A DNA stretch of 64,000 bases from Echinarachnius parma (taxonomy: Eukaryota > Echinodermata > Echinoidea > Clypeasteroida > Echinarachniidae): contig JBAMJV010010674.1 in assembly GCA_037951105.1 (NCBI GenBank), positions 62,001 through 126,000 on the forward strand, read 5' to 3'. Below are positions 28,480 through 63,059 of this stretch, piece after piece. The notes beneath the pieces were generated by a model that did not search any database, was not told where the DNA came from, and saw only the letters and a program-made list of their open reading frames with translations. A program made the position numbers and the translations under genes. The first letter of the stretch is position 1; the number at the start of each line of letters is the position of its first letter.

Positions 28480-29070
28480 TTCAAAATGCTTCTTCTTCGT
28501 TATTTTTCAACCGATTTTGATTCTGATTGTTTCATAAGATAGGGCTAGGAGGGGGATTTAAAACTTCTACACAGAATCGTGAAATTCATTATCTATAGTA
28601 ATTTATGCAAATTTATTCGAAATCACAAAAAATGCTTCTTCTCCTTCATTTCTCGACCGATTTTGATTTGGTTTGCTTTATCTGGTAGAGCTAACTTTGG
28701 TACACTAAACTCCTACACAGAATTTTGAAATTTTTCTCCATTAATTAATTATGGTAATTTATGCAAATTTCTTCCAAAAATAACAAAAATTGCTTCTTCT
28801 CCCTCATTTCTTGACCGATTTTCATTCTGTTTGGTTTATCTAATAGGGCTAGGTTTCATAAGATAGGGCTAGGAGGGGGATTTAAAACTTCTACACAGAA
28901 TCATGAAATTCATTATCTATGGTAATTTATGCAAATTTATTCGAAATCACAAAAAATACTTCTTCATTTCTCGACCGATTTTGATTTGGTTTGCTTTATC
29001 TGGTAGAGCTAACTTTGGTACACTAAACTTCTACACAGAATTTTGAAATTTTTCTCCATTCATTCATTAT
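28480..29070. repeat. tandem array, ~150-160-bp unit
   Basis: The motif 'accgattttgattt' and variants recurs near 28510, 28660, 28814 and 28975. Each is followed by 'ctacacagaat' and 'ggtaatttatgcaaattt'. Four diverged monomers. Confidence 0.75.
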
Positions 29071-29177
29071 GGTAATTTTTAATTTTTTAATTTTTTAATT
29101 TTTTAATTTTTTAAATTTTTTTAAATTTTTTTTTTGTGTCTATGTTTGAATTAACTTAGAAGACAACAGTAATAATT

Positions 29178-33696: not shown

Positions 33697-34047
33697 GTGG
33701 TGTGGCAAGATTGGTAGAGCGCGCGCTTTCCGATCGTGAGACTCAGAGTTTGAACCCTGTGTAGGCCCACTGCGTTTGTCCTTCAGCAAGACAATTAATC
33801 CACAATTGCTGCTCTCTACCCAGGTGTATAAATGGGTACCATGGTCAGGTGTTAATTATCCTTAGCGCCATCATCAGTGGCGGCTCGGCTAGTATGCTCC
33901 CCGGGGAGTTGAGAAAGTACGCAATATCATTGTGTGGGTTTGAAATGTACCTGATGACCATGGGTAATAATAATTAAATAATTATTTAAGCGCTTAGAGG
34001 CTCTTTGCAATATGCGCTATATAAATGTCTATTATTATTATATATTA
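33697..34047 (+). mobile_element. tRNA-derived SINE, possible Deu-domain type
   Basis: Box A-like 'tggcaagattggtagagcg', box B-like 'gagtttgaaccc', then a conserved body 'tatgctccccggggagttga' and a 3' tail 'gcgctatataaatgtctatt' with (att)n. Body and tail resemble SINEs of deuterostome invertebrates, a call from recall rather than a search. Copies are at 50246 and 60543. Confidence 0.75.
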
Positions 34048-36264: not shown

Positions 36265-36762
36265 AGGTGCACCTGTAAAGTGTCTATAACTCCACAAAAA
36301 TTAATTTGAGATTCCACATTTCTCTTCTACCGTGTTGTTTGGCTATTTTGGTAAGAAAATAATAAAATAGGGTTACCGTAGATTTGTTTTCAAATGCCCC
36401 TTTAGTATGACGATATCTATCATTGATAATCATTCAGCTCAAGAGCGTTTATAAATGCATGGTCATACTGTAATTAGTTATAAACGCTGAAAAAGAGCAA
36501 AGAAAATAGGATTCCAGCGGGATTCAAACCCGAGACCTCCGGATTGCTAGACCGGCGCTCTTACCGACTGAGCTATAGAAAACCATTTGTTCGGTGTTAT
36601 AAAAGCTGACACATATTTTAACTTTCTCAACCAGGAAAGCAGTGTTCTTTTTCAATGAAACTTTCACACATCATTCGGACATATCTTACAATGATATTTT
36701 GGTATAGGATTAAAGTCTCAAATATCATTTTGGGCAATATCCGACACTTTACAGGTGCACCT
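36265..36762. mobile_element. TTAA-flanked MITE carrying a tRNA-like segment
   Basis: The ends AGGTGCACCTGTAAAGTGTC and its exact inverted copy are flanked by TTAA at 36261-36264 and 36763-36766. The tRNA-like segment sits inside on the - strand. The element is duplicated in unit B at 52113-52613. Confidence 0.8.
36509..36586 (-). repeat. tRNA-Ala-like (AGC) relic inside a MITE
   Basis: On the - strand the D arm (TAGCTCAGTCGGTAAGAGC), anticodon region CCGGTCTAGCAATCCGG and T arm CGGGTTTGAATCCCG are well kept. The acceptor stem (ttttcta against tggaatc) does not pair, and the anticodon stem has a T-T mismatch. Probably tRNA-derived and not a working tRNA gene. Twin at 52361-52434. Confidence 0.65.
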
Positions 36763-37503: not shown

Positions 37504-39359
37504 ATGGTATATTCCTCACTACTGGTATTTCACATTTCACAACATTATTATAAACTGGGCTCCAAAAGAAACTGATCACTTTTTCAGAGCGCCGCTCACT
37601 AAAATCCATAGCATCAAATTGAATCATATTTAGACACAGATAAGCTATTGTTCTCCTTATGAAGCATATCTTTAAAATTACAAATTTGCTTTTGCCAAAA
37701 AATAGAAAAATGCGATGGAATCACTACAGGTCAGTTTTAAAAAATCACAGAAACTGCTCGCTGCGAACCTCCACGAGAGGCGGTCTATTCAGAACTTTCA
37801 ATAGCTATTCATTCAACTTCAAAGCGGGTTATTAGTCCAGTCAATATATGGTCTTGACCTCGGCAAAATTGCAACACGGGATTTTTTTTCGGAATTCTGT
37901 TCAGGAAACTCCCCTTAACAACCAAAAAAAAGTCCCAAGAAATCGAAGTTGCGGAAAGTGGTTTAATTTGCATAATATGCAAATTAGGTATTGTTTGAAT
38001 GTAAAAATATTAAATTAATTGTTTTAAAATATTTATATACTATATTGACGCCAGAAAAGTATGGCAACCCAATATTAGGATCATAAAGTACACGATGAAC
38101 GCATACCCGTACTAGTAATTACTACATAATTTGCATAATATGCAAATTAGGTATTGTTTGAATGTACAAATATTAAATTAATTGTTTCAAAATATTTATA
38201 ACCTATACTGACGCCAGAAAAGTATGGCAACCCAATATTAGGATCATAAAGTACACGATGAACGCATACCCGTACTAGTAATTACTACATAATTTGCATA
38301 ATATGCAAATTAGGTTTCACCCAAAAATCAAATATTCCATATTGTTGAACAAATAGACTTGATCGAGTGGATGCAAATGATAAAGCCTTTATATTTTTAA
38401 GGTCAGATGTGAAACAGGTTAGGGTGACACGCAATCGAAACATTAGCATCATTAGTACTTTGCATATTATGCAAATGAGCTATAGTTTGATTGGATCAAT
38501 ATGAAGTTTTGTATTGTTTAAAAACTAAATGCACTATCATAGCCAGAAGAGTGTGCACATCTTGTATCAAAAGCCAATATACCATAACACACGGTGACAC
38601 GTATATCAGTTCAACATAATTTGCATATAATTTGCATAATATGCAAATTAATGTCCACAAAATGGTAAAATATTGCACATTTCTTTAAAAAAAACGGACT
38701 TGATTGAGTGAATACAAACGATAAAACCTTCATTTTTCAGGTCAGTAGTAGCAAGTATTTTTGTTAGACATCCTACCAAAACAGTAGGCCTGTAATTAAA
38801 GTGCTTTGCATTATGCAAATGAGCTATTGAAACGGTTACTGATAATTTTAGTTTCGATGTAACTTTGCATTTACAAATGAATGAAAACTATAGGCTACAG
38901 AATGGTAATCAATTTGTACCAAGTTCAACGAACACATCTATGGACTCATCAATCGTGATAGATGATACATAAATTGGGGATATTATTCCTATTATTAGTA
39001 TTTATCTGCATATAGATTCCCATGTTTCATTGGTACAACGAAATTTCAATGAAGATTTGCATTTAGAAACATAACAGGTCAAACTGTTATAGTTATGTAT
39101 ACAGTTTTCACAGTAAAGACATAACTGCTCATATGATATCGAGAAATAATAATAGCGTAACTTGCTTTGAACAATGCAAATAATTTAGCCTTTTTTATAT
39201 TCTAACATTCTAGGTTTTAAAACTGTTGAACAAAAGCGTATAACAGCAGAGATTTTCTTTCAAACTTCAGCAAACATAATGGCATGTTGTCCGTACAAGT
39301 CAATTGCATCATTGCATGCTAACATGAAAGTCGACAGCGAGAATGATGGTCATTTTAAG

Positions 39360-40403
39360 CCCGGGGGCCACTCAACTATATTGCTGTACACACGCGCGAC
39401 CAAAAAAACGGGTAAAAGGGTCCTTTTTGCCGATCATGACGCGTCACGCGCGTGACGCGTTTCGGGTGTCAAAAAGGCCAAAATCAGAAAAAAGGGTATG
39501 TTTGTGGAGTTAAACAAATCCCGGGGGGTCTGTCCTCATAGAAAGGGGGGTATCATGCGTGACCAAGGACTTGCCAAAAGCACCCTAAGCGAGTATTTGC
39601 GTGGTGCAAAAAATACACCCTAAGTAAGTGTGATTATCGGTAATTTGATACCCTAAGCAAGTAATCAATTTTTTGTAAACCCCTCAGCAAGTATTTTTGA
39701 TACCCTAAGCAAGTAATCAATTTTTTGTAACCCCCTAAGCAAGTTATAACTATTTTTGATACCCTAAGCAAGTAATCAAATTTTTGTAAACCCCTAAGCA
39801 AGTCATAACTATATTTGAAACCCTAAGCAAGTAATCTTTTTTTTTGTAAACCCCTATTAAAAGCAAGTGATAACTATTTTTGATACCCTAAGCAAGTAAG
39901 CTGAGTTTTTGAGACCCTAAATGAGTAATTCATCTTTTTGAGACCCTAAACGAGTAATTTATCAGCGTAAAAAAGATACCCTTTTTCCTGATTTTGGGTG
40001 ATTTTGAAACCCTATTCGAGATACTCGAGTATCTCGCCTGATCGTAAAAAAACACCCTAATTACTCGTTTTCTTGGTCACGCATGATACCCCCCTTTCAA
40101 TGAGGACAGACCCGCCCCCCCCCCCCCCCCCCCCCCACCCGGGAAACAAATACGCGTTTAGGGTATCTTTTTCTCCAAACTTGTTTAATTGAGAGCAATT
40201 GACGTAGACCTAGTTTAGGGGTATGTTTTAGGGGTATGTTTTAGGGGTTATATTTGTTTTGGGGGCAAAATTGACAAAAAAAGTACGCGAAAATACTTGA
40301 ATAGGGTATAAATTTGACCAATGGATACAACTTGTTTAGGGTGGGTTTGAAAAACCTGTGGTCGCGCGTGTGTACAGCAATATAGTTGAGTGGGCCCCCC
40401 GGC
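39360..40403. mobile_element. 1.04-kb nested element with 8-bp TSD
   Basis: The inverted ends cccgggggccactcaac and gttgagtgggccccccggc are flanked by the exact 8-bp repeat ATTTTAAG at 39352-39359 and 40404-40411. The long arms contain 'tatattgctgtacacacgcg' and its complement. The interior is a tandem of 'accctaagcaagtaatc' units and a C run at 40109-40136. The superfamily is not certain; 8-bp duplications fit hAT or P-type elements. Confidence 0.85.
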
Positions 40404-42176
40404 ATTTTAAGATTGTTTCCCTTTATCTGAGGAACAGGAATTGAACTGAAAAGATACAACAAACTATCTAGTTTAAAAACGTAAATATTTTTTTTTTTTT
40501 CAAATCGTATAGTGCAGGAAAATTGAAGGATTCACAGGTTTTCACCCAACAGGGGCCGCGACGAGAACGCTCCTTCATTGGCCCCCCAAAATAATAAAAA
40601 CAGAAATAAACAGAAATGACTAGAAATGTTAAAATATTTCTCCAAAATATAACTATGTAACATTATCCTCTTGTCATTTTATAAAGACAACTCAAATCTG
40701 CTTACCACATGTTTTGAAATGATGTGATAATGATTTCACATGTGAAAATATACTCCGGAACGTACTTTCATTCTGGTAAATGTTCTTGTTCTTTAGAAAA
40801 ACACAATCCTTAGTTCGTTATATACAGTTAGGACATGTCGCCCTGGTTACATGTTATGCACAGGTTTTCTTTTTTGTTGTAATTATACCGAACTTACTTC
40901 AGAATCATATTTGTATACATTAATCCTGCTTAGGATAAGTTTGTTATATCATAACCTAAGAACATGTTTAGCGACTTATATTTGTTTCTAACGTAGATGT
41001 TGCACTCACACATGCATTTAAGCGGTCATAATTTATAGTCACTTCTATTTTTGTTTGTTTATCAAAATATATTATAAATCAAACTTGAAATCGGTAAATT
41101 ATAATCCTTGCTTTCTCCAGGACTGCTTCATACATATTTCTCTAAATAGAATATATCATCTTGCTTTCAAATAAAGTGTTATGATGAATAGGACATTGTC
41201 CTGCTGTCCATAATAATAATGAATTTATATAGCGCATTTTCCATATAGAATGTTCAAATGCGCTTGATATTATGATTAATGAGTGTGTCTACTTTTAATC
41301 GTATTCAATATACATGCATTTGTTTTAACAGGCTTTATTTTTGTCAAGTTTAATGTGTACAAATGAGTTGACCATATCTCTTTGTGCCATCTACATTTCA
41401 CTTAGTCATCATTCATTATTATTTTGAAACCACTGTCCATGTCCTCTTCATCGCTTTGTTGATGTGTCACTTATTCAAACCTTACTAAGTTTATCGTGTA
41501 AGTTTTTGTCAAAGTATATGTTTCCCTTGTAAAAAATAAGCTATGAAAGGTTACTTAGTATAATTTTGAAATATATCATTTATACAACATATTGTGTGAG
41601 ATTTCCAGTCTTGTGAATTAGCACAATTGTACATGACGGTTAACGTAACTGTATTATATGTGCATGTTATCCTTATATACATACATACATTTGTTTGTCC
41701 TTGTTTTTCATCAACAAATATCTAATCAATATGATTTTGACAATAATCAAATTACAGTGTGTATGTCTTCCTGCTCCACATGATCAAAATTTCAGTTGTC
41801 GTCCATCAATAGAAATCTTTGGTGCTAAATAAGTAATCGACATTTTGACATGACATTAAAGAAACTTAAATCCTGGATCACGTACTTTTCAAACTCTGGC
41901 TTAAGAAATTGCATTATAAGTTATGGGTCAAGATCAATCGTAAGTCAATGTAGATGAACCTTCAAGGTGATGACCTTCTTTTGGCAGGGTTTGATAATAG
42001 ATGCATAATATGCAAATTGCATCACAATGGATGGATTGTCTTGCTCCCATTGGGTGCCATAAACGTTGTAATTACCGACCTTGCCAATAGAGGCTTTATC
42101 ATTTGCATTCACTCAATAAAGTCTGTATTTTTTTTTAGAATATGAAATATCTACATCATAGGGCATCTTAAATTTG

Positions 42177-42345
42177 GTTAGTATGCTCCCATGGGAGTTG
42201 AGATGGTGCACACGATAGGTATGCGGGTTTGAACTGTACCTGATGACCAATTGCAAGGGTAATAACACGCCTCTGAATAGGGCACCCAGATTCATGGCGC
42301 TCTATATAAATTCTATATTGATATTATTATTATTATTATTGATAT
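42177..42345 (+). mobile_element. 5'-truncated SINE
   Basis: 'tatgctcccatgggagttga', 'gggtttgaactgtacctgat' and the tail 'gcgctctatataaattcta' with (att)n match the body and tail of the SINE at 33697. Confidence 0.65.
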
Positions 42346-43339
42346 TTTTATCTGTCTTTTGTGGATCTTAATTTGCATAATTATGCAAATAATATTGGTA
42401 CTATTAGTACTGATATATGTGCGTTTTAGTATCTTAGCTTTGGATAAAAGATTCACAAACTTTTCTAGCTAAAATCATACATCTACATTTCAAACGACTG
42501 CAGAACTTCATTGGTCCATTTAAACAATAGCTCATTCGCATATTATGCAAATTACTTTGATAGTAATGTTTTGATTGTATGTCAAACTTTACCCTTTTTC
42601 ATATCTGACCTTTAAAAAGATACTTTTTCATTTGCATCCTCTCAATGAAGCCCGATTTGTAAAACAATATGAAATTTTTTCTTTTTTTGCGAGCTTAATT
42701 TGCATATTATGCAAATTAAGTAGCTATTATTAGAACGGACGTGCGTTCATCGTGTAGTTTGGGATACCAATATTTGGTTGCCATACTTTTTTGGCGTTAA
42801 TATAGTATATAAATATTTTTAAACAATTAATTTCATATTTTTACTTTCAAACAATACCTAATTTGCATATTATGCAAATTAAACCACTTTCCGCAACTCC
42901 GATTTCTTGGGACTTTTTTTTGGTTGTTAAGGGGAGTTTCCTGAACAGAATTCCGAAAAAAAATCCCGTGTTGCAATTTTGCCGAGGTTACCCCCTTATA
43001 TATGCTAGATTGACTGGACTATATGTAACCACTAGACTAGCTATTGTCCGTACCGAGCTCTGTGCCCGGAAGGCGAGCAGTTTCTGTGATTTTCGAAAAA
43101 TGACCTCTTGCGATTTCACCTTATTTTATTCTTTGTTGACTAAAGCAAACATAATTTGTTTTAGATGAGCTTGCTAAGGGGTATTGTAGCTAATCTATGC
43201 TCAATTATGATTAATGTTTATGCTTTGGATTTTAATGTGTGTCACTCTGAAGAAGTGATAAGTTTCTTTTGGAACCCAGTTTAGTAATTATCTTCTTTCT
43301 ACCCTTCATTCTTGTTTGTTTCATTTTATAAACTATCTT

Positions 43340-43575: not shown

Positions 43576-44463
43576 CACCGTGTCCCAGAAAAAAACGAAA
43601 CCGGGTTTCATGGCAGAAATTTTCTATCATAATGAATAATTTAATTGATGATATATATATGCCTGGAAAGCTCTGTATCTCTTCTTTCATTTGATGTGCA
43701 ACTTATGGCACATACTTCAAGCATGACTGAATTAGAACAATGGAAAGTGGTGTTACCAATATTCAATTTGCACGCATAAATTTGAAGTTTGGGTGAGTTT
43801 TAAGAGTTGTAAACGTACTTATTTTTAAAAAGGACAAACACCACATAAAAGTTCATATTTTTATCTTTTACATGACACCTCATGCTAAAAAAATTAATGA
43901 TTTATGCCAGAGAACGAGTACAATGAAAACATGCCTGATTTCTGCCCGAATGAGTGAAAGTTGAGTAAGAAGTCGCTCAGCTTTCCTGACTAGCAGCTGA
44001 CAATGGACTTTGATGCATGAGTGAATTTACACAAACATGGGGATCAGGAAACAGGCTAGATCAGGAAAGTTACTCATTTGGGCTGGAATCAAGCATGTTT
44101 TCATTGTATTCGTTCTCTGGCATATATAATTTATTTTTTAATCATGAGGTGTCATATAAAAGATAAAATTATGAATTTTCATGCGGTGTCTGTCCTTTTT
44201 CAAAATAAGTACATTTACTACTCTTAAAACTCTCCCCAAAACCTCACCCAAACTTGCAATTTCTGCGCGCAAATTGAATTTTGGTAACACCACTTTCTAT
44301 CGTTCTAATTCAGTCATGCGTGAATTATGTGCCATAAGTTGTATATCAAATAAAAGAAGAGACACATAGCTTTTCAGACATATATATATCATCAAGGAAA
44401 TTATTCATTATAACATAACATTTCTGCCATGAAACCCGGTTTTGTTTTTTCTGGGACACGGTG
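43576..44463. mobile_element. 888-bp mariner-like non-autonomous element at TA
   Basis: The ends CACCGTGTCCCAGAAAA and its complement (finishing GGGACACGGTG) are flanked by TA. Inverted homology extends about 350 bp, including 'aaaccgggtttcatggcaga'. The empty site is intact in unit B: 'gtgccTATAcaataaatg' with TA at 54436-54437. Confidence 0.88.
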
Positions 44464-44878: not shown

Positions 44879-47800
44879 TCACTCGTTTTTCTCCCTCTCA
44901 TGAGTCTTCATGTGCGCATACAACCCAGCATGCTGCGTAAACGCCTTGTTGCAAGTGCCGCATTTGTATGGCTTTTCCCCGGTGTGCCGACGCTCGTGAT
45001 CCTGTCTCGTTTTCGAACGAGCAAAAGCCTGATCACAGAATCTGCAGGGGAAACGTCTTTCCCCGGTGTGCACTTTCTCATGTTCCTTGAGACGCGATTC
45101 TTCGGCAAACATCTTCCCGCAAGTGGAACACTGGAAATCGTAGTTGCCGGTGTGCCTTGCCATGTGCACCCTGAACGCCGCCTTCCTAGTGAACCCCTTG
45201 GGACAAAGGTCACAATGAAACCTCTTGATCAAATTTCTTCCATTATGCCTGCTCATATGGAAGCGGAGGGACGAGTCGTTCCAGAGTCCCATGCCGCAGA
45301 TCTGGCAGGTGTATCTTGGACCATCCCGATGATACCTGTCATTGTGCGCAATAAGACTTGTGCTGCTTTTGTATGTTTTATTGCAGAGAGAGCATTGGTG
45401 CACTTTTTCGGTCTTGAAGTGTGTCTTCATATGCATTATGCAAGATTGCACTCTCGTTAAGGCTTTTCCACAGATGGAACACACCTTTGATTTGGGCTCC
45501 CTATTCTGTGCACAGCTGTGCATCTGAAATGATTTCTCAGAGCTGAAATATTGATTGCACTGGTCACATTTCACACGTCTGACAGAAGTGTTCCTCGTTT
45601 TGTCACAATCCTCACTGCATTCAATATGCTGCTCCAGTTCTGTCTCCTTGAGGAATGCTCCTTTACACACTTTACATTTGAACATTTTCTGCTTCGAATA
45701 AGTGATCAGATGTAGCTCAAGCTGAAATCTAGAACCAAACATCTTATCGCAATGGTCACAAACAAAAGGAGGCCCCTTCTTTATGACAAGTTCTGGATCA
45801 CCAGAGGTCCCTTCAGCTGCTTCATTTCCTTGCACATCAGCCTCACCAGGTTCTTTTACTTCTCTGCTCTTAGGATGCTGTACAAAATCTCCATATTCCC
45901 AACCATTTTCATGGCTGTGTATTTTCCACAAGTGTCTAAGGACCTCTCGACGTCTAAAGAAACCCTTCTTACACCAACCGCATTTGATTGGGAACTCTCC
46001 TTCATGGCGGAATAGATGATCACTCAAGTGACCTTGCTGCACATATGATTTGTCGCATTTGGGGCACGCAAAACGCTGCTTTCCACTTTCCAGTATATTA
46101 AACTGGGAATCTTGATCACTTGCTAGTGGATTTTGCTCCTCAACATCGGCATTACTGGCATCCACCTCCTCATCGTCGCACGCCTCATCTCCATCCATGC
46201 CATCATATTCCTCCTTAATCTCAACATGTGTCACATAAAAGACATCCTTGACATCCTCCGTTTCCGACTCCTTGAGCACTTCCGTTGCTTTTTCGTTGTT
46301 TGGTTGTTGTTTGTTTTTGTATATTTTCTTGTTAACATCATGACGCTTCATGTGCAGCTTGAGCTCTCCTGGTCGCCTGAAGCCTTTATTACAGAGGCTA
46401 CATCTGTGAGGATATTCTCCTGTATGTGTCATCATGTGCTCCTTCAAATGCCACAGGGATGAAAATGCTTTCCCGCACGTTTCACAAACAGAAGATTGTT
46501 TTTTCTTTGTCCCTTGCTTGACACTCAATGGCTTGTCTGTAGACCCCTGTACATTCTTAGATACATTATTGGTATCTTCAATTTCAGCTTTCACTTTCTG
46601 GTTTTGATCGTGAACCTGTGGTTCATCATCATTTGATTCCGAATTTTGCACTTTGTTTTTGTATATTTTCTTGTTAGCATTATGACGTTTCATGTGCGAT
46701 GTAAGCTCTCCTGGTCGCCTGAAGCCTTTATCACAGAGGCTACATCTGTGAGGATATTCTCCTGTATGAATCATCATGTGCTCCTTCAAATGCCACAGGG
46801 ATGATAATGCTTTCCCACACGTTTCACAAACAGACGATTGTTTTTTCTTTGTCCCTTGCTTGACACTCAATGGCTTGTCTGTAGACCTCTGGACCTTCTT
46901 AGATACATTATTGGTATCTTCAATTCCAGCTTTCACATTCTGGTTTTGATCGTGAACCTGTGGTTCATCATCATTTGATTCCAAATTTCGCACTTTGTTT
47001 TTGTATATTTTCTTGTTAGCATTATGACGTTTCATGTGCAATGTGAGCTCTCCTGGTCGCCTGAAGCCTTTATTACAGAGGCTACATCTGTGAGGATATT
47101 CTCCTGTATGAATCATCATGTGCTCCTTCAAATGCCACAGGGCGGAAAATGCTTTGCCGCACGTTTCACAAACAGACGATTGTTTTTTCTTTGTCTCTTT
47201 CTTGACGCTCACTGGCTTGTCTGTAGACCTCTGGACCTTCTTAGATACATTATTGGTATCTTCAATTCCAGCTTTCACATTCTGGTTTTGATCGTGAACC
47301 TGTGGTTCATCATCATTTGATTCCAAATTTCGCACTTTGTTTTTGTATATTTTCTTGTTAGCATTATGACGTTTCATGTGCAATGTGAGCTCTCCTGGTC
47401 GCCTGAAGCCTTTATTACAGAGGCTACATCTGTGAGGATATTCTCCTGTATGAATCATCATGTGCTCCTTCAAATGCCACAGGGCGGAAAATGCTTTGCC
47501 GCACGTTTCACAAACAGACGATTGTTTTTTCTTTGTCTCTTTCTTGACGCTCACTGGCTTGTCTGTAGACCTCTGTACCTTCTTAGATACATTATTGGTA
47601 TCTTCAATTTCAGCTTTCACTTTTGGGTTTTGATTCTGATCATGTGGTTCTTTAAGACTTGATTCCAAAATTCGCACTTTCTTTTTGTATATTTTCTTGT
47701 TAGCACCATGACGCTTCTTGTGCAAGTTGAACTCTGAACGTCGCCTGAAGCCTTTATTACAGAGGCTACATCTGTGAGGATATTCTCCTGTATGAATCAT

Positions 47801-49839
47801 CATGTGCTCCTTCAAGTGCCACAGGGCGGAAAATGCTTTGCCACACGTTTCACAAACTAAAGGTTTTTTTTTGTTCTTGTTAGCATCATGAAGCTTGATG
47901 TGCAAATTGAGCTCTGAACGTCGCCTAAAGCCTTTATAACAGAGGCTACATCTATGAGGATATTCTCCTGTATGAATCATCATGTGCTCCTTCAAATGCC
48001 ACAGGGATGAAAATGCTTTCCCGCATGTTTCACAAACAGACGATTGTTTTTTCTTTGTCCCTTGCTTGACGCTCACTGGCTTGTCTTCATTTAATCGTTC
48101 TTCTGATACAACATTGGCACCTCCAAATCCAGCCACCTTCTGATTGCGAATCTCTGTTTTTTCATTCTGCCCTTTAGAAGTTAGTTCGTCATTTTTGTCC
48201 ATGAACTTGTCTGGATGATGACGCTTTGTGTGTGAGTCAAGCTCTGCAGGTCGCCGAAAACCTTTCTTACAAACTTCACATTTCATATGATATTCTCCGG
48301 TATGTGTGATTGCATGTTCCTTCAAATTACTCACAAATTGAAATGCCTTCCCGCATGCTTCACAAACGTGACAACGTTTTCTGACCCTTTCTTCTTTGTC
48401 CTTTTTCTTTGGCCTGCCTCGTCTCCTCTGTGGGGGGTTAAGGGTGAGGGGTGAGGGGTGGTATCTCCTCTGGTGCAAGATCAGTTCTTGTTGGCGGCGA
48501 CATCCTTTGCTACAGATGCTGCACTTCAGAGGATATTCTCCTGTGTGTGTGATCATGTGTTCCTTCAGATGACTCGCTGAATGGAATTCTTTGCCACACT
48601 GTTGACATTGTTTTCTTTGTGGCTTTCCCTCGACTGTCAATGGCTTGTCTTTGGTCCTCTCGACCTGAGGGATGTCATTGGTATCTCCAATTTCAGCCAG
48701 CTTCTCATTGGGAACGCGTGTTTCTCGACGCTGTGATTCGGAAATGTGTTCTTTGTCGGGATGCTGACGCTTCGTGTGCAAGTCGAGCTGTGCAGTTCGC
48801 AGAAAACCTTTATCACAAATTCCACACCTTACAGAATATTCTCCTGTATGAGATATTTTGTGATCCTTCAAATGACCAGTTGATCCAAATGTTTTGCCAC
48901 ATGTTTCACAAACATACATGTAAGTAAATTTTCTTTTTTCACCTGGCTTCTTCCGATTATGACTTTGTGTTTCTTGATGCTGCGATTCGGAAATGTGTTC
49001 TTTGTTGGTATGATGACGCTTTGTGTGCAAGTCGAGTTGTGCCGTTCGCAGAAAACCTTTTTCACAAATTCCACAACTTACAGGGTATTCTCCTGTATGT
49101 GTTATTATGTGATCCTTCAAATGACCCTTTGATCCAAACGCTTTGCCGCATGTTTCACAAACGTACGTGTAAGACCTTCTAACTTTGTTCCCTGAGTGTG
49201 CTTCATTCTGGCTGCACTTACTCTTTACATTTCGAACAGCTGTCAACTCCCCGTTTATCATCTCTTCAACTTCCTGACATCTCATGACTTTGTACTCGAC
49301 GTTCAATTGTATGATTTCTGCCGAACCATCTTCTTCTTGATCCTCGACACATTCAGGAACCCTAATGTTACGTTCTTTGTCATGATCCAGGATGTCAGGG
49401 ATCTTCGCTTCTGTATAAAATACAGATTTCTCTGATGCACTTTCCTCATCCTTGCAAACATAGGCTTTTTGTCTTTCCGACTGATTACCCACAAAACTGA
49501 CAGCGTATCCTTCACAGTTCGTAAAGTCATTACCCATTTCCTTGTCCTTGTAGATCTCATCTGTACTTACTTCAGAAGAACTTTCCAGGTTTCCATCAAA
49601 ATAATCTTCACAGGGGAGGGATATACTGGCCTGAGAATTCTTCACATCATCCAAACGGCAGTTATGAGTTGTCCCGTACCAGTCGTCTGTCAATCTGGTT
49701 GACTGGCTGTATTCCATTGTTCCTGGGCTGGCATTAGCAGAACCAGCCTGACTTCCATTGCATTCCTCAGGAGATGAATTCATGGTTCCTCTGTTCTGGT
49801 TGTCTGAGTTGGTCATGTAGATTTCCTCTCCAATTGCAT
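44879..49839 (-). CDS. multi-C2H2 zinc-finger protein A (large 3' exon)
   Basis: A 3' splice site (ctactgtag) precedes 49839 on this strand. The first in-exon Met in frame is at 49816, giving 1645 residues; an upstream exon could add more. I see no KRAB, SCAN, BTB or ZAD domain. The acidic, Ser/Glu-rich N part (about 215 residues from that Met) is followed by ten two-finger modules. Each pairs a CETCGKAF..HLKEHMMIH-type finger, through HTGEYP, with an HRCSLCNKGFRR..LH..RH-type finger. Modules are joined by 25-65-residue Lys/Glu/Asp/Asn-rich linkers. The last ~400 residues hold about twelve more varied fingers, two or three lacking a ligand (for example HLITY). Probably a nuclear DNA-binding protein; targets unknown and orthology not recognised. 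Confidence 0.93.
46340..47700. repeat. 342-bp coding tandem repeat in zinc-finger gene A
   Basis: The two-finger module plus linker repeats with a 342-bp (114-codon) period, at 46340, 46682, 47024 and 47366. The finger part of the units starting at 47024 and 47366 is identical for about 200 bases, and the linkers are nearly so. This indicates very recent duplication or gene conversion. Confidence 0.9.
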
Positions 49840-49989
49840 CTACAGTAGTTTTAAAAAAAGGAAAACAAAAAACATAAACAAAATGTAGAATAGGCATTCT
49901 CTGCCAAGACATGCCCACAACATGATGAAAAGAATGGATACTTGGACATGCAAATCACATAGAGCATCCATTCTTTTTGTCATGCATTG

Positions 49990-50245: not shown

Positions 50246-50572
50246 GTGGTGTGGCAAGATTGGTAGAGCGCGCGCTTTCTGATCGTGAGATCCCGAGTTT
50301 GAACCCTGTGTAGGCCCACTGCGTTTGTCCTTCAGCAAGAAATGGGTACCGTGGTCGGGTGTTAATTAGCCTTAGCGTCATCATCAGTGACAGCTCGGCT
50401 AGTATGCTCCCCGGGGAGTTGAGAAAGGACGCAATATCATTGTGTTGGGTTTGAAATGTACCTGATGACCATGGGTAATAATAATTAAATAATTATTTAA
50501 GCGCTTAGAGGCTCTTTGCAATATGCGCCATATAAATGTCTATTATTATTATATATTAAAGTGATCCATTAA
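50246..50572 (+). mobile_element. SINE copy in unit B
   Basis: Same as the SINE at 33697 but missing about 48 bp between 'cagcaaga' and 'aatgggtacc'. Confidence 0.75.
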
Positions 50573-52112: not shown

Positions 52113-52613
52113 AGGTGCACCTGTAAAGTGTCTATAACTCCACAAAAATTAATTTGAGGTTCCACATTTCTCTTCTACCGTGTTGTTTGGCTATTTTGGT
52201 AAGAAAATAATAAAATAGGGTTACCGTAGATTTTTTTCAAATGCCCCTTTAGTATGACGATATCTATCATTGATAATCATTCAGCTCAAGAGCGTTTATA
52301 AATGCATGGTCATACTGTAATTAGTTATAAAAGCTGAAAAAGAGCAAAGAAAATAGGATTCCAGCGGGATTCAAACCCGAGACCTCCGGATTGCTAGACC
52401 GGCGCTCTTACCGACTGAGCTATAAAAAACCATTTGTTCGGTGTTATAAAAGCTGACACATATTTTAACTTTCTCAACAAGGAAAGCAGTGTTCTTTTTC
52501 AATGAAACTTTCACACATCATTCGGACATATCTTACAATGATATTTTGGTATAGGATTGAAGTCTCAAATATCATTTTGGGCAATATCCGACACTTTACA
52601 GGTGCACGTACCT
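52113..52613. mobile_element. TTAA-flanked MITE with tRNA-like segment, unit B
   Basis: Unit B copy of 36265-36762, with TTAA at 52109-52112 and 52614-52617. The right end has a 4-bp insertion (gcacgtacct). The tRNA-like relic lies on the - strand at about 52361-52434. Confidence 0.75.
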
Positions 52614-53360: not shown

Positions 53361-54084
53361 CACTACTCACAACAAGAAAGTACCCCCTAGCATTTTTTCA
53401 TATATCTCAACAAGTATTTCACCGATTTTGATCATTCAAACGGTAATGGATGCGCAATTTTCTTACGCACAATGTGAGTGGTAAATGGTTGCCATAGCGT
53501 TACGTTTTCATCATGAAAAAATGAATTTTCTAAAACAAAGTGCCCCCCAAAAAGTTGCACTTTCAGTTTTATTTCGCATAGTGGGTACATTTTGTATACG
53601 AGTAAACATCTTTATTGAAGATTACCCGACACACAAATCTATTATGTTATCCACTACTACTGCTGCATTGTTTTTAGTGACAAAAGCATGCATTTTTCTA
53701 AAACAATAGGCCTTTCAATATGAAATGGATTAGAATGGCCGAAGTCATGTCCTGTTTCATTTTTATTGGAGTTGGCCTAATTCACTAATCTGTTATGTAA
53801 TTCAGTACTACTGCTGCATTGTTCACAGTCCAAAAGCTTACTCGTGTACAAAATGTACCCACTATGCCAAATAAAACTGAAAGTGCAACTTTTTTGTTGG
53901 CACTTTGTTTTAGAAAATTCATTTTTTTAATGATGAAAACGTAACGCTATGGCAACCATTTACCACTCACATTGTGCGTAAGAAAATTGCGCATCCATTA
54001 CCGTTTGAATGATCAAAATCGGTGAAATACTTTTTGAGGTATATGAAAAAATGCTAGGGGGGTACTTACTTGTTGTGAGTAGTG
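53361..54084. mobile_element. 724-bp hairpin element at TA, absent from unit A
   Basis: The ends CACTACTCACAACAAG and its complement are flanked by TA at 53359-53360 and 54085-54086. The inverted arms run about 240 bp ('gcactttcagttttattt', 'taatggatgcgcaattttct'). Unit A has the empty site 'gtaTAttcctcactac' at about 37508-37522. Confidence 0.9.
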
Positions 54085-54546
54085 TATTCCTCACTACTGG
54101 TATTTCACATTTCACAACATTATTATAGTAATTATCTTCTTTCTTCCCTTCATTCTTGTTTGTTTCATTTCATAAACTTTTATAATCTTTTCCAATGCGC
54201 TTTGAGCACCTTATTAGGTGGATATTGCGCAATATAAATATTCAATATTATTATTATTATTATTATTTATTAATCAGGGTGCCTATGATACAATAAATGT
54301 GATGTAAGTTGCACGATGGAAGAAATCTGGAAATTATTTTATGAGCAATGCGCTTTGAGCACCTTATTAGGTGGATATTGCAAAATATAAATATTCAATA
54401 TTATTATTATTATTATTTATTAATCAGGGTGCCTATACAATAAATGTGATGTAAGTTGCACGATGGAAGAAATCTGGAAATTATTTTATGAGCAAGCAAG
54501 CCGAGTGCTAACATACATAGTGCTTCAAAAAAGAAATGTTGAACAT

Positions 54547-54848: not shown

Positions 54849-57800
54849 TCACTCGTTTTTCTCCCTCTCATGAGTCTTCATGTGCGCATACAACCCAGCA
54901 TGCTGCGTAAACGCCTTGTTGCAAGTGCCGCATTTGTATGGCTTTTCCCCGGTGTGCCGACGCTCGTGATCCTGTCTCGTTTTCGAACGAGCAAAAGCCT
55001 GATCACAGAATCTGCAGGGGAAACGTCTTTCCCCGGTGTGCACTTGCTCATGTTCCTTGAGACGCGATTCTTCGGCAAACATCTTGCCGCAAGTGGAACA
55101 CTGGAAATCGTAGTTGCCGGTGTGCCTTGCCATGTGTACCCTGAAAGCCGCCTTCCTAGCAAACCCCTTGGGACAAAGGTCACAATGAAACCTCTTGATC
55201 AAATTTCTTCCATTATGCCTGCTCATATGGAAGCGGAGGGACGAGTCATTCCAGAGTCCCATGCCGCAGATCTGGCAGGTGTATCTTGGACCATCCCGAT
55301 GATACCTATCATTGTGCGCAATAAGACTTGTGCTGCTTTTGTATGTTTTATTGCAGAGAGAGCATTGGTGCACTTTTTCGGTCTTGAAGTGTGTCTTCAT
55401 ATGCATTATGCAAGATTGCACTCTCGTGAAGGCTTTTCCACAGATGGAACACACCTTTGATTTGGGCTCCCTATTCTGTGCACAGCTGTGCATCTGAAAT
55501 GATTTCTCAGAGCTGAAATATTGATTGCACTGTTCGCATTTCACACGTCTGACAGAAGTGTTCCTCGTTTTGTCACAATCCTCACTGCATTCAATATGCT
55601 GCTCCAGTTCTGTTTCCTTGAGGAATGCTCCTTTACACACTTTACATTTGAACATTTTCTGCTTCGAATAAGTGATCAGATGTAGCTCAAGCTGAAATCT
55701 AGAACCGAACATCTTATCACAATGGTCACAAACAAAAGGAGGCCCCTTCTTTCTGACAAGTTCTGGATCACCAGAGGTCCCTTCAGTTGCTACATTTCCT
55801 TGCACATCAGCCTCACCAGGTTCTTTTACTTCTCTGCTCTTAGGATGCGGTACAAAATCTCCATATTCCCAACCATTTTCATGGCTGTGTATTTTCCACA
55901 AGTGTCTAAGGACCTCTCGACGTCTAAAGAAACCCTTCTTACACCAACCGCATTTGATTGGGAACTCTCCTTCATGGCGGAATAGATGATCACTCAAGTG
56001 ACCTTGCTGCACATATGATTTGTCGCATTTGGGGCACGCAAAACGCTGCTTTCCACTTTCCAGTATATTGAACTGGGAATCTTGATCACTTGCTAGCGGA
56101 TTTTGCTCCTCAACATCGGCATTACTGGCATCCACCTCATCATCGTCGCACGCCTCATCTCCATCCATGCCATCATATTCCTCCTTAATCTCAACATGTG
56201 TCACATAAAAGACATCCTTGACATCCTCTGTTTCCGACTCCTTGAGCACTTCCGTTGCTTTTTCGTTGTTTGGTTGTTGTTTGTTTTTGTATATTTTCTT
56301 GTTAACATCATGACGCTTCATGTGCAGCTTGAGCTCTCCTGGTCGCCTGAAGCCTTTATTACAGAGGCTACATCTGTGAGGATATTCTCCTGTATGTGTC
56401 ATCATGTGCTCCTTCAAATGCCACAGGGATGAAAATGCTTTCCCGCACGTTTCACAAACAGAAGATTGTTTTTTCTTTGTCCCTTGCTTGACGCTCACTG
56501 GCTTGTCTGTAGACCTCTGTACCTTCTTAGATACATTATTGGTATCTTCAATTCCAGCTTCCACATTCTGGTTTTGATCGTGAACCTGTGGTTCATCATC
56601 ATTTGATTCCAAATTTTGCACTTTGTTTTTGTATATTTTCTTGTTAGCATTATGACGTTTCATGTGCGATGTAAGCTCTCCTGGTCGCCTGAAGCCTTTA
56701 TCACAGAGGCTACATCTGTGAGGATATTCTCCTGTATGTATCATCATGTGCTCCTTCAAATGCCACAGGGATGAAAGTGCTTTGCCGCACGTTTCACAAA
56801 CAGAAGATTGTTTTTTCTTTGTCCCTTGCTTGACGCTCACTGGCTTGTCTGTAGACCTCTGTACCTTCTTAGATACATTATTGGTATCTTCAATTCCAGC
56901 TTTCACATTCTGGTTTTGATCGTGAACCTGTGGTTCATCATCAATTGATTCCAAATTTCGCACTTTGTTTTTGTATATTTTCTTGTTAGCATTATGACGT
57001 TTCATGTGCAATGTGAGCTCTCCTGGTCGCCTGAAGCCTTTATTACAGAGGCTACATCTGTGAGGATATTCTCCTGTATGAATCATCATGTGCTCCTTCA
57101 AATGCCACAGGGATGAAAATGCTTTCCCACACGTTTCACAAACAGACGATTGTTTTTTCTTTGTCACTTGCTTGACACTCAATGGCTTGTCTGCAGACCT
57201 CTGGACCTTCTTAGATACATTATTGGTATCTTCAATTCCAGCTTTCACATTCTGGTTTTGATTGTGAACCTGTGGTTCATCATCACTTGATTCCAAATTT
57301 CGCACTTTGTTTTTGTATATTTTCTTGTTAGCATTATGACGTTTCATGTGCAATGTGAGCTCTCCTGGTCGCCTGAAGCCTTTATTACAGAGGCTACATC
57401 TGTGAGGATATTCTCCAGTATGAATCATCATGTGCTCCTTCAAATGCCACAGGGCGGAAAATGCTTTGCCGCACGTTTCACAAACAGACGATTGTTTTTT
57501 CTTTGTCTCTTTCTTGACGCTCACTGGCTTGTCTGTAGACCTCTGTACCTTCTTAGATACATTATTGGTATCTTCAATTTCAGCTTTCACTTTTTGGTTT
57601 TGATTCTGATCATGTGGTTCTTTCAGACTCGATTCCGAAATTCGCACTTTCTTTTTGTATATTTTCTTGTTAGCATCATGACGCTTTTTGTGCAAGTTGA
57701 ACTCTGAACGTCGCCTGAAGCCTTTATTACAGAGGCTACATCTGTGAGGATATTCTCCTGTATGAATCATCATGTGCTCCTTCAAATGCCACAGGGCGGA

Positions 57801-60142
57801 AAATGCTTTGCCACATGTTTCACAAACTAAAGGTTTTTTTTTTTTCTTGTTAGCATCATGAAGCTTGATGTGCAAATTGAGCTCTGAACGTCGCCTAAAG
57901 CCTTTATAACAGAGGCTACATCTATGAGGATATTCTCCTGTATGAATCATCATGTGCTCCTTCAAATGCCACAGGGATGAAAATGCTTTCCCGCATGTTT
58001 CACAAACAGACGATTGTTTTTTCTTTGTCCCTTGCTTGACGCTCACTGGCTTGTCTTCATTTAATCGTTCTTCTGATACAACATTGGCATCTCCAAATCC
58101 AGCCACCTTCTGATTGCGAATCTCTGTTTTTTCATTCTGCCCTTTAGAAGTTAGTTCGTCATTTTTGTCCATGAACTTGTCTGGATGACGCTTTGTGTGT
58201 GAGTCAAGCTCTGCAGGTCGCCGAAAACCTTTCTTACAAACTTCACATTTCATATGATATTCTCCGGTATGTGTGATTGCATGTTCCTTCAAATTACTCG
58301 CAAATTGAAATGCCTTCCCGCATGCTTCACAAACATGACAACGTTTTCTGACCCTTTCTTCTTTGTCCTTTTTCTTTGGCCTGCCTCGTCTCCTCTGTGG
58401 GGGGTTAAGGGTGAGGGGTGAGGGGTGGTATCTCCTCTGGTGCAAGATCAGTTCTTGTTGGCGTCGACATCCTTTGCTACAGATGCTGCACTTCAGAGGA
58501 TATTCTCCTGTGTGTGTGATCATGTGTTCCTTCAGATGACTCGCTGAATGGAATTCTTTGCCACACAGTTGACATTGTTTTCTACCCTTTCCTTTGCCCC
58601 ACACTGGCCTTCCTCCTTGCCCGGAACACTCTTGTGCATCTTCGAGCCCATCCACCTTGTTTACCTCAAATTTGTCATTGGTGTCTCTAATTTCAGCCAC
58701 CTCCTCATTGTGAATTTGTGATTCTTGATGCTGTGATTTTGAAACCGTGTTGGGATGATGGTGCTTTGTGTGCGAGTCAAGCTCTGCAGGTCGCCGAAAA
58801 CCTTTCTTACAAACTTCACAATTTACAGGATATTCTCCGGTATGTGTGATTGAATGTTCCTTCAAATTAGCCACTGAATGAAATGCTTCCCCGCATTGAC
58901 CGCAAACATGAGAAAGTTTTCTTTGTGGCTTTCTCTCGACAGTCGATGGCTTGTCTTTGGTCCTCCCGACCTGAGGGATGTCATTGGTATATCCAATTTC
59001 AGCCAGCTTCTCATTGGGGATGCATGCTACTTGATTCTGTGATTCGAAAATGTGTTCTTTGTCGGGATGATGACGCTTCGTGTGCAAGTCGAGCTGTGCA
59101 GTTCGCAGAAAACCTTTATCACAAATTCCACACCTTATAGAATATTCTCCTGTATGAGATAGTTTGTGATCCTTCAAATGACCAGTTGATCCAAATGTTT
59201 TGCCACATGTTTCACAAACATACATGTAAGTCAATTTTCTTTTTTCCCCTGGCTTCTTCCGATTATGACTTTGTGTTTCTTGATGCTGCGATTCGGAAAT
59301 GTGTTCTTTGTTTGTATGATGACGCTTCGTGTGCAAGTCGAGCTGTGCAGTTCGCAGAAAACCTTTTTCACAAATTCCACAACTTACAGGGTATTCTCCT
59401 GTATGTGTTATTATGTGATCCTTCAAATGACCCTTTGATCCAAACGCTTTGCCGCATGTTTCACAAACGTACGTGTAAGACCTTCTAACTTTGTTCCCCG
59501 AGTGTGCTTCATTCTGGCTGCACTTACTCCTTTCATTTCGAACAGCTGTCAACTCCCTGTTTATCATCTCTTCAACTACCTGACATCTCATGACTTTATA
59601 CTCGACGTTCAATTGTATGATTTCTGCCGAACCATCTTCTTCTTGATCCTCGACACATTCAGGAACCCTAATGTTACGTTCTTTGTCATGATCCAGGATG
59701 TCAGGGATCTTCGCTTCTGTATAAAATACAGATTTCTCTGATGCACTTTCCTCATCCTTGCAAACATAGGCTTTTTGTCTTTCCGACTGATTACCCACAA
59801 AACTGACAGCGTATCCTTCACAGTTCGTAAAGTCATTACCCATTTCCTTGTCCTTGTAGATCTCATCTGTACTTACTTCAGAAGAACTTTCCAGGTTTCC
59901 ATCAAAATAATCTTCACAGGGGAGGGATCTGGCTTGAGAATTCTTCACATCATCCAAATGGCAGTTATGAGTTGTCCCGTACCAGTCGTCTGTCAATCTG
60001 GTTGACTGGCTGTATTCCATTGTTCCTGGGCTGGCATTAGCGGAACCAGCCTGACTTCCATTGCATTCCTCAGGAGATGAATTCATGGTTTCTCTGTTCT
60101 GGTTGTCTGAGTTGGTCATGTAGCTTTCCTCTCCAATTGCAT
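54849..60142 (-). CDS. multi-C2H2 zinc-finger protein B (large 3' exon)
   Basis: Paralogue of the 44879-49839 gene, with the same 3' splice site and the same exon layout. The first in-frame Met inside the exon is at 60119, giving 1756 residues. It has eleven two-finger modules instead of ten. The extra one (about 58600-58930) holds HVCGQCGEAFHSVANLKEHS and VNCEVCKKGFRRPAELDSH, most like the module that starts HVCEACGKAFQF. The C-terminal cluster is nearly identical to that of A (for example LTRVQSC in A, FTRVQSC in B). No frameshift or stop is seen, so both copies look functional. Confidence 0.93.
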
Positions 60143-60287
60143 CTACAGTAGTTAAAAAAAAAGGAAAACAAAAAACATAAACAAAATGTAGAGGCATTCT
60201 CTGCCAAGACATGCCCACAACATGATGAAAAGAATGGATACTCCATGCAAATCACATAGAGCATCCATTCTTTTTGTCATGCCTTGG

Positions 60288-61569: not shown

Positions 61570-62700
61570 TTATGGCGGCCATCTTGGATTTTCAAAATGG
61601 CCGCCATAACAATAGGTGTTTCTCATTATCTCAGCTTCCAGGTGGCCTAGAGTAATGATTTGAACGACTAAACATATGTTTTCATGGATGGGGAAGACAG
61701 TGGTACAATGTAAAATAAGATAAACATAACCACAAAGCGGCCATCTTGGATTTTCAAAATGGCCGCCTTGAAAAACAGTGTTTTTCAATATTTCAGCATT
61801 CAAGTGGCCTAGAGTAATGATTTTAATGGCTACACATATGTTTTCAGGGATGGGGAAGACAGTGGTACAATGTAAAATAAGATAAACATAACCACAAAGC
61901 GGCCATCTTGGATTTTCAAAATGGCCGCCTTGAAAATCAGTGTTTTTCAATATTTCAGCATTCAAGTGGCCTAGAGTAATGATTTTAATGGCTACACATA
62001 TGTTTTCAGGGATGGGGAAGACAGTGGTACAATGTAAAATAAGATAAACATAACCACAAAGCGGCCATCTTGGATTTTCAAAATGGCCGCCTTGAAAATC
62101 CGTGTTTTTCAATATTTCAGCATTCATGTGGCCTAGAGTCATGATTATAACGGCTAAACATCCATTTTCAGGGACTAGGAGGCCAGTGGAACAATGTAAA
62201 ATTAGTCAAACATAAGGTTCCACAAAGCGGCCATCTTGGATTTTCAAAATGGCCATCTTGAAAATCAGTGTTTTTCAATATCTCAGCATCTTAGTGGCCT
62301 AGAGTCATGATTTTAATGGCTAAACATACATTTTCAGGGATTTGGAAGCCAGTGGTATGAATTAAAATACCGTAAGCTACACACAACCACAAAGCGGCCA
62401 TCTTGGATTTTCAAAATGGCCACGAAAATGTGTTTTGTTTCACTATTTCGGCATGCAAGTGGCGTAAAGTCATGATTTTAACGGCTAAACACACATTTTC
62501 AGGGATGAGGAAACCAGTGCATGGTAAAAAGTAAATGAATCTAAACATTACCCAAAAGTGGCCATCTTGGATTTTCAAAATGTCCACCTTGAAAATACGT
62601 TTTTTTCTCACTATTTCAGCATCCAAGTGGCTTAGAGTCATGATTTTAATTGGTAAACATACATTTTCAAGATGAGGAAGCCAGTGGTTTAAAGTAAAGT
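61570..62700. repeat. tandem array, seven ~162-167-bp monomers
   Basis: The motif gcggccatcttggattttca starts at 61575, 61737, 61899, 62061, 62227 and 62394, with a variant (gtggccatc) at 62559. The first spacings are exactly 162 bp (54 codons), which leaves an open frame on the - strand that I judge non-coding. Each monomer has a 'ggcggccatcttgg...caaaatggccgcc' hairpin with YY1-like ATGGC cores on both strands, and a conserved 'gtggcctagagtaatgattt'. Confidence 0.9.
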
Positions 62701-63059
62701 AAGGTTAACATGATATAGATTATAATGTTAGTTTCATTATAACAGATGTTCTTAATGGTTCAGAACTTCAATGTGTAGCACGCTACACCTCTAGCATGTC
62801 TAGATAGCTTATTGACATATTTATGCAGAGTCTTTGCATTTCATCATCCTCATCACTGTCACTGGTCGACAACATATTATTCCTACGTTCCTCGTCATTC
62901 TTGCACTGAGTGCTACACTGGCAGAGGTCTATGCATGATAAATTATTGGACCTACACGAGCATCAACATGTTGGAACAGTCTGCTTGGGTCCTACTAATT
63001 AGCGCGAACAAGTGCAAAATAATGCGACAAGCGCGAAGAAGTGCGAACCTGCTGTGTCA

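What the first reader, a model, noticed from the sequence alone, without database searches (positions are those of the whole stretch)
37553..43281. 5.7-kb foldback element proven by an empty site
Both TA flanks and the clean unit B sequence 'attattaTAgtaatt' define a single insertion of 5,729 bp after the duplication. It has ~1.3-kb inverted arms made of repeated monomers and no transposase frame. Such a large non-autonomous foldback element is unusual and may be undescribed.
Basis: partly seen in the sequence, partly recalled or inferred. Interest (0 to 1): 0.72.

Follow-up and report, generated by a model that had tools for sequence, protein, structure and literature searches.

The report
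Foldback transposon nested inside a MITE
The 5.7-kb stretch is not one jumping element but several nested ones: a common 536-bp element, interrupted by a 5.2-kb hairpin-armed transposon that carries another transposon and a broken self-cleaving ribozyme inside it.

Summary
The 5,729-bp stretch with TA on both sides is really there and really absent from the sister copy of the duplication, whose substitutions amount to 2-3%. It is not one foldback element. The 20-bp end belongs to a MITE of about 536 bp with about 1,230 ends per strand in this genome; 16 of 16 complete MITEs read straight through the point where the window has 5,189 bp (37833-43021) inserted, flanked by TAT. That insert is the real foldback: 13-bp ends, arms of about 1 kb with alternating 163-172-bp monomers that share only a palindrome, no coding found. 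It is a dispersed non-autonomous family: 15 other ends read lie at the same base, none in the MITE; a perfect 3-bp duplication in 2 of 3 copies with both ends read. Inside sit a 1,043-bp element with a 9-bp duplication, absent from 3 of 14 family loci, and a CPEB3/HDV-like ribozyme (60.7 bits); at least 60 such ribozymes lie in the genome. Its catalytic C is U here and in 11 of 14 family loci. The kind is known (Tetris, Galileo); the ribozyme cargo is the surprising part. No autonomous partner was found.

The parts
37551..37552 (.). TA, left copy of the MITE's target duplication
   Evidence: empty site at 54119 in unit B
37553..37832 (+). left half (280 bp) of a MITE of about 536 bp
   Evidence: continuous with the right half in 16 of 16 complete MITEs; 90.6-94.4% identity to them over both halves
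37830..37832 (.). TAT, left copy of the foldback's target duplication
   Evidence: single TAT at this point in 16 of 16 complete MITEs
37833..43021 (.). 5,189-bp non-autonomous foldback element, ends TAGTCCAGTCAAT / ATTGACTGGACTA
   Evidence: other copies end at the same base
37833..38830 (+). left arm: 131-bp terminal stretch, then monomers A A B A B and a degenerate sixth
41990..43021 (-). right arm: terminal stretch, monomers A B A B, the last one interrupted by a SINE-like stretch
37964..38126 (+). monomer L1 (type A), begins with palindromic core TAATTTGCATAATATGCAAATTA; the next type-A monomer (38127-38289) is 97% identical
39351..39359 (.). CATTTTAAG, left 9-bp duplication of the nested element
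   Evidence: single copy in L052
39360..40402 (.). 1,043-bp nested element, ends CCCGGGGGCCACTCAAC / GTTGAGTGGGCCCCCCGG, with a further inverted pair inside (39523-39567 / 40072-40116)
   Evidence: empty site in 3 of 14 family loci
40403..40411 (.). CATTTTAAG, right 9-bp duplication of the nested element
40524..40597 (-). CPEB3/HDV-like ribozyme (Rfam RF00622); position 57 is U instead of the catalytic C
   Evidence: C57 from PMC9901934
42145..42350 (-). SINE-like stretch in the right arm (approximate limits)
   Evidence: parts match 33887-33960, 50397-50471 and 54224-54270; spacing between palindromes 372 (from 41999 to 42371) instead of about 165
43022..43024 (.). TAT, right copy of the foldback's target duplication
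43022..43281 (+). right half (260 bp) of the MITE
43282..43283 (.). TA, right copy of the MITE's target duplication
54119..54133 (.). empty site in unit B

Best explanation
After a segmental duplication, a MITE of about 536 bp inserted at a TA in unit A. A non-autonomous foldback element then inserted into the middle of that MITE and duplicated TAT. The foldback belongs to a dispersed family. It is moved in trans as DNA by a transposase it does not encode, which recognises the TAGTCCAGTCAAT ends and probably also the palindromic sites repeated every 163-172 bp in both arms (binding is inferred). The inserted copy already carried a 1,043-bp nested element and a CPEB3-like ribozyme as cargo; the ribozyme has lost its catalytic C, so cleavage is not needed for amplification. 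Shown by sequence: the nesting, the three empty sites, the family, the cargo and the 3-bp duplication. Inferred: the order MITE then foldback as separate events, that this copy brought its cargo with it, trans-mobilisation, the role of the palindromes.
For: Empty site for the whole in unit B. 16 of 16 complete MITEs uninterrupted at the junction, 15 of 16 with TA on both sides. Foldback ends at TAGTCCAGTCAAT at other sites: two partial copies in one tandemly repeated stretch of C26, L055 and L056 left and L054 right, and 10 ends in the 20 end stretches fetched for 10 further copies; none of these 15 flanks is the MITE. Both ends read: window TAT/TAT, C216 TCT/TCT, C3446 TAC/TAT. The 10 end stretches are 97.7-100% identical to the window copy; L055 is 94.3% identical over 37964-42939, nested element included. 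Nested element absent, 9-bp site once, in L034, L052, L053; present in 10 of 14. Position 57 is C in those 3 and T in the 10 with the nested element. No Pfam hit in 6 frames. Nine palindromic cores in the element, 0 in the rest of the window, kept in L054-L056.
Against: A MITE already carrying the foldback could have moved as one 5.7-kb unit; this is not excluded, only unsupported (0 of 15 other ends have MITE flanks). The third copy with both ends has TAC/TAT, not a perfect duplication, and right flanks elsewhere are not always TAN (CAA, AAA, CTA). 10 of the 20 end stretches held no end: some still lie inside the element, others show no match. Longer family copies without the nested element are only about 90-94% identical to the window (L054, L056) and the C26 partial copies 88-90%, so the family as a whole is not uniformly young. 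No autonomous partner was found because the genome search for it did not complete. The 14 family loci were chosen by their ribozyme, so they say nothing about copies without it.
Confidence: 0.92

Rival explanations
1. One 5.7-kb TA-flanked foldback transposon inserted once.
For: TA on both sides, inverted ends, empty site in unit B.
Against: 16 of 16 complete MITEs lack the interior with a precise 3-bp junction; the interior occurs elsewhere without the outer 280/260 bp.
Confidence: 0.03
2. The MITE-plus-foldback composite moved into unit A as one unit, the foldback having landed in the MITE elsewhere.
For: The empty site in unit B fits this equally well.
Against: 0 of 15 other foldback ends read have MITE flanks. 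It needs the MITE transposase to move a tenfold longer element.
Confidence: 0.1
3. Unit B lost the segment by precise excision.
For: Cut-and-paste elements can excise (general knowledge).
Against: Unit B shows the target with a single TA and no footprint: 43 bp left and 17 bp right of the joint are identical to unit A; unit B would have to lose every layer at once.
Confidence: 0.04
4. The interior spread as an RNA-borne element, the ribozyme marking a retrotransposon 5' end.
For: HDV-like ribozymes sit at 5' ends of some non-LTR retrotransposons (PMC8256844 passages); an A-run follows the ribozyme.
Against: Copies end at inverted repeats, with arms on both sides of the ribozyme and 3-bp duplications; 11 of 14 family loci have lost the catalytic C. 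It may still describe how the ribozyme first entered the family.
Confidence: 0.05

Closest known systems
Tetris of Drosophila virilis (PMC4079207; abstract and passages read)
   Same: Apparently non-autonomous foldback without conserved ORFs, TIRs with internal tandem repeats (about 220 bp), autonomous copy not found
   Different: Tetris has 8-10-bp target duplications and is assigned by its authors to Mutator; here 3 bp. No alternating monomers with a shared palindrome and no ribozyme are mentioned in the passages read
Galileo of Drosophila (PMC3688188 abstract; PMC3573991 passages)
   Same: Long, internally repetitive TIRs of up to about 1.2 kb; variable number of about 210-bp repeats; multiple transposase (THAP) binding sites in the repeats
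   Different: Galileo is a P-superfamily element; no P-type transposase or other coding found here
TA-flanked MITEs (Tc1/mariner-type, recalled)
   Same: The outer element: TA duplication in 15 of 16 complete copies, short, about 1,230 ends per strand
   Different: Its left and right halves cross-match at only 72-79% over about 200 bp (window halves against the opposite halves of other copies); transposase unknown
CPEB3 / HDV-like ribozymes in mobile elements (PMC8256844 passages; PMC4035085, PMC3774820 and PMC3414825 search listings only)
   Same: Rfam RF00622 full-length match, with complementary P2 strands
   Different: Here carried inside a DNA foldback transposon and lacking the catalytic C; the mobile cases in the passages read are non-LTR retrotransposons

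Membership tests
Foldback-type non-autonomous DNA transposon | long inverted arms with internal direct repeats | tested here: met
Foldback-type non-autonomous DNA transposon | dispersed copies with the same ends and a target duplication | tested here: met
   (perfect duplication in 2 of 3 copies with both ends read, the window included)
Foldback-type non-autonomous DNA transposon | no transposase in the element | tested here: met
   for the window copy; in L054 and L056 only 1 and 3 frames of 90 aa or more were listed, not scanned against Pfam
Mutator-type foldback (Tetris-like) | 8-10-bp target duplication | tested here: not met
   3 bp in the window and C216
PIF/Harbinger or another 3-bp superfamily | 3-bp duplication plus its own transposase | tested here: inconclusive
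   3-bp duplication seen; no transposase found; superfamily signatures are recalled only
Tc1/mariner-type MITE (outer element) | TA target duplication | tested here: met
   15 of 16 complete copies and the window
Tc1/mariner-type MITE (outer element) | ends shared with an autonomous Tc1/mariner element | not tested
   no search for it was made; the genome search tool was busy for nearly the whole session
CPEB3/HDV-like ribozyme | full-length match to the covariance model above the gathering score | tested here: met
   60.7 bits against 35, model positions 1-78 of 78
CPEB3/HDV-like ribozyme | catalytic cytosine (C57) | tested here: not met
   U in the window copy; C in 9 of the 20 loci read, 3 of them in the foldback family
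CPEB3/HDV-like ribozyme | self-cleavage | not testable with these tools
   needs an in-vitro assay

The most novel reading that the evidence does not exclude
The CPEB3-like ribozyme is a mobile module in this genome: a 64-nt stretch 89-95% identical between the foldback and other contexts whose flanks show only 33-51% identity to it, at least 60 copies. One context is a DNA foldback transposon, most read copies of which have lost the catalytic C. If the contexts that keep C57 prove to be retrotransposon 5' ends, this would make a retrotransposon origin of the mammalian CPEB3 ribozyme directly testable.
Probability: 0.25. Interest if true: 0.78.

Novelty: new variant of a known kind. Interest (0 to 1): 0.5.

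Why it matters
It corrects a plausible misreading: inverted ends plus an empty site do not prove a single element, since each layer needs its own empty site. It gives a foldback family whose arms hold a regular array of palindromic sites, a good case for how long repetitive arms work. It also shows self-cleaving ribozymes of the CPEB3 type multiplied as cargo of a DNA transposon, which bears on how such ribozymes spread and why many genomic copies may be dead.

Tried and rejected
Rejected: arm-to-arm gene conversion as the cause of the highly similar stretch 37858-38052. The contrast is real (5 of 195 mismatches against 53 of 209 outside; 0 of 200 shuffles reach it), but the outer 209 bp turned out to be the two diverged halves of the MITE, so the stretch is the terminal part of the foldback arms. 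A weaker hint remains (L1-L2 differ at 5 of 89 and 0 of 74 sites) and is not used. Rejected: the ribozyme plus A-run as a separate mini-retroposon specific to this copy, because its flanks on both sides are shared by 14 of 20 loci.

Led nowhere: pattern scans of viral contigs and genome contigs, 0 matches each; paper search for five sequence strings, 0 papers; an assignment to a superfamily. Fold predictions were not run, as no coding was found. Position-by-position identity of MITE halves without gaps is spoiled by indels and not used; the 72-79% quoted is from BLAST. The other 8 of 24 MITE places read (L012, L016, L019, L021, L022, L026, L027, L028) were not counted as complete because one end was missing or the pair was over 700 bp apart. 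I also narrowed the flank identity around the empty site, the wording on age and that on the MITE halves; the one-element rival went from 0.04 to 0.03.

Not answered: the genome search was busy (pattern, answered; arm DNA, never answered; ribozyme family, answered in 98; foldback end pattern, never answered). Hence no copy number for the foldback and no search for its autonomous partner.
Full report
What is there. The window lies in a 1.2-Gb genome of 14,790 contigs, organism not named; long C2H2 zinc-finger frames suggest an animal (inference). It holds a segmental duplication: unit A (about 33.6-50.4 kb) and unit B (about 50.2-60.7 kb), aligned in pieces. Counting substitutions only, pieces outside the zinc-finger frame are 96.7-98.1% identical (990, 1,411, 404 and 294 columns) and a mostly coding piece 98.4% (1,844 columns); BLAST, which counts gaps, gives 91-97% for the main pieces. 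Unit A has 5,729 bp between ATTATTATA and TAGTAATT; unit B reads ATTATTATAGTAATT at 54119, with 43 bp left and 17 bp right of the joint identical. The observation of an empty site is sound, and the insertion is later than the duplication unless unit B lost it.

The ends belong to a MITE. The 20-bp end, one mismatch allowed, occurs 1,236 times forward and 1,232 times reverse in the genome, against 0 and 0 for the reversed pattern. Of the roughly 100 places listed, by my count 38 +/- pairs can be made, 35 of them with starts 484-527 bp apart. I read 24 places: four pairs (L001-L008, each read twice) and 20 places whose listed end had no listed partner (L009-L028), so the sample leans towards atypical copies. 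BLAST shows the MITE as window 37553-37832 joined to 43022-43281. Sixteen are complete by my criterion (both ends with at most 4 mismatches, 400-700 bp apart); all 16 read GGTTATGTA(A/C)CC without a break where the window has its interior, and 15 of 16 have TA on both sides.

The real foldback. The interior, 37833-43021 (5,189 bp), is flanked by TAT on both sides and starts TAGTCCAGTCAAT, repeated inverted at its other end. Two partial copies (about 148 bp matched, 88-90%), in a tandemly repeated stretch of contig C26, begin at exactly this base. Three longer copies were read: L055 matches the window from 37829 to 42939 (94.3% over the main piece), L056 has the left end and L054 the right end, each with foreign flanks; the other ends of L054 and L055 break off into other sequence, and L056 is rearranged in its right part. 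For ten more copies I fetched two 501-bp stretches each, placed by offset from the ribozyme: 10 of the 20 stretches held an end, all at this base, with homology to the window stopping 0-5 bases beyond it; the other 10 lay inside the element or showed no match. Left 3-bp flanks were TAT, TCT, TAA, TAC; right ones CAA, AAA, CTA, TAA, TCT, TAT. Both ends were read in C216 (TCT/TCT) and C3446 (TAC/TAT), besides the window (TAT/TAT). These 10 end stretches are 97.7-100% identical to the window copy, so at least part of the family multiplied recently; L054 and L056, without the nested element, are about 90-94% identical. None of the 15 other ends lies in the MITE.

Arms. Left monomers L1-L6 and right R1-R3 fall into two alternating types: A (L1, L2, L4, R1, R3, probably L6) and B (L3, L5, R2). 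Outside the core, A and B are 31-47% identical in the multiple alignment; realigned in pairs, 9 A-B pairs give 38-50% against 39-50% for shuffled bodies. Within type A identity is 44-96% (the inner members are weakly linked), within B 61-75%; the position-matched pairs L1-R1, L3-R2 and L4-R3 have 86, 75 and 67%. All share a palindrome, TAATTTGCATAATATGCAAATTA, two inverted octamers; mean core identity 0.90. Nine cores with at most 2 mismatches lie in the element and none in the rest of the window. L054-L056 keep them; L055 has six left-arm cores against five in the window, so monomer number varies. I infer a multi-site binding platform, as shown for the Galileo THAP domain (PMC3688188, abstract); a host POU-type factor is an alternative (recalled). 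Neither was tested.

No coding. The longest stop-to-stop frame in the stretch is 120 aa; six frames with X at stops gave no Pfam family at E <= 1. The same library recognises the zinc-finger frame, though that frame has no X, so it is only a partial control. In L054 and L056, frames of 90 aa or more number 1 and 3; I did not scan them against Pfam.

Cargo. (a) 39360-40402, 1,043 bp, flanked by CATTTTAAG (9 bp). In L034, L052 and L053 the family sequence joins 40403 to 39359 with the 9 bp once (letters shown for L052). In 10 of the 14 family loci the nested element, or at least its end, is present; L043 is undetermined. L055 carries it at a different site, so the composite moves as a unit. A deleted relative lies in L010. 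(b) 40524-40597, minus strand: Rfam CPEB3 ribozyme, 60.7 bits against a gathering score of 35, E = 2.6e-14. Its P2 strands (UGAAGGA/UCCUUCA, my reading) are complementary although they differ from the Rfam consensus. Position 57, the catalytic cytosine of the CPEB3 ribozyme, mutation of which abolishes activity (PMC9901934, passage), is U; I counted the position by hand on the Rfam alignment.

Ribozyme copies. In the own genome 60 of 60 scored candidates passed the cut-off (31,723 candidates in the first look, of which 60 were scored, so 60 is a lower bound); 0 of 14 control genomes. I read 504 bp around 20 of the 60, mostly from the upper part of the list and including the lowest: 14 lie in the foldback core, 6 elsewhere. 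Position 57 is C in all 3 family loci without the nested element, T in all 10 with it, and T in L043. These loci are related, so this is a pattern of descent rather than independent trials. The branch without the catalytic C is the more numerous one in this sample, so spread does not seem to need cleavage. The 6 other loci keep C57. L044, L049 and L050 are near-identical to each other, as are L045 and L046; L036 resembles L045 downstream (65%) but not upstream (50%). Between five foldback copies (the window among them) and L036, L045 and L044 the ribozyme (64 nt) is 89-95% identical while flanks are 33-51% upstream and 38-50% downstream.

Literature. Foldback elements with internally repetitive TIRs and no transposase are known: Tetris, with 8-10-bp duplications (PMC4079207, abstract and passages); Galileo has such TIRs and a known transposase (PMC3688188 abstract; PMC3573991 passages). 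HDV-like ribozymes at the 5' ends of non-LTR retrotransposons are known (PMC8256844 passages; PMC4035085, PMC3774820 and PMC3414825 seen in listings only). I saw no report of such a ribozyme carried by a DNA foldback, but only the searches bear on this, in an open-licence library, and most listed papers were not opened.

Verdict. The site is real and recent; the reading as one 5.7-kb foldback is wrong. It is a foldback inside a MITE, with cargo inside the foldback that is shared with other copies. The kind is known; the 3-bp duplication, the alternating monomers with a shared palindrome and the ribozyme cargo make it a new variant.

Noticed in passing
own genome, 60 places; e.g. L044, L049, L050 and L036, L045, L046: CPEB3-like ribozymes with C57 kept in contexts unrelated to the foldback; possible retrotransposon 5' ends.
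   Followed up: partly
window 43576-44463: 888-bp imperfect palindrome (81% with its own complement; ends CACCGTGTCCCAG), TA on both sides, absent from unit B near 54437.
   Followed up: partly
window 53361-54084: 724-bp element with ends CACTACTCACAACAAG, TA on both sides, in unit B only. With the MITE and the palindrome, three TA insertions tell the two units apart in the same short part of the duplication.
   Followed up: partly
window 44879-49954 and 54849-60251, minus strand: Duplicated long single-frame C2H2 zinc-finger frames with 342-bp internal repeats (Pfam scan of the first only).
   Followed up: no
window 28483-29078: Tandem array of about 158 bp with ATGCAAAT octamers; no BLAST match to the foldback monomers at E <= 1e-3.
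   Followed up: no
L012, L026, L031, L032, L033: MITE copies interrupted by other inserts at other points, some with inverted ends or palindromic.
   Followed up: partly
window 36508-36584 and 52355-52431: tRNA-Ala (agc) in both units of the duplication.
   Followed up: no
window 61575-62711: Tandem array of about 162 bp, about seven copies.
   Followed up: no
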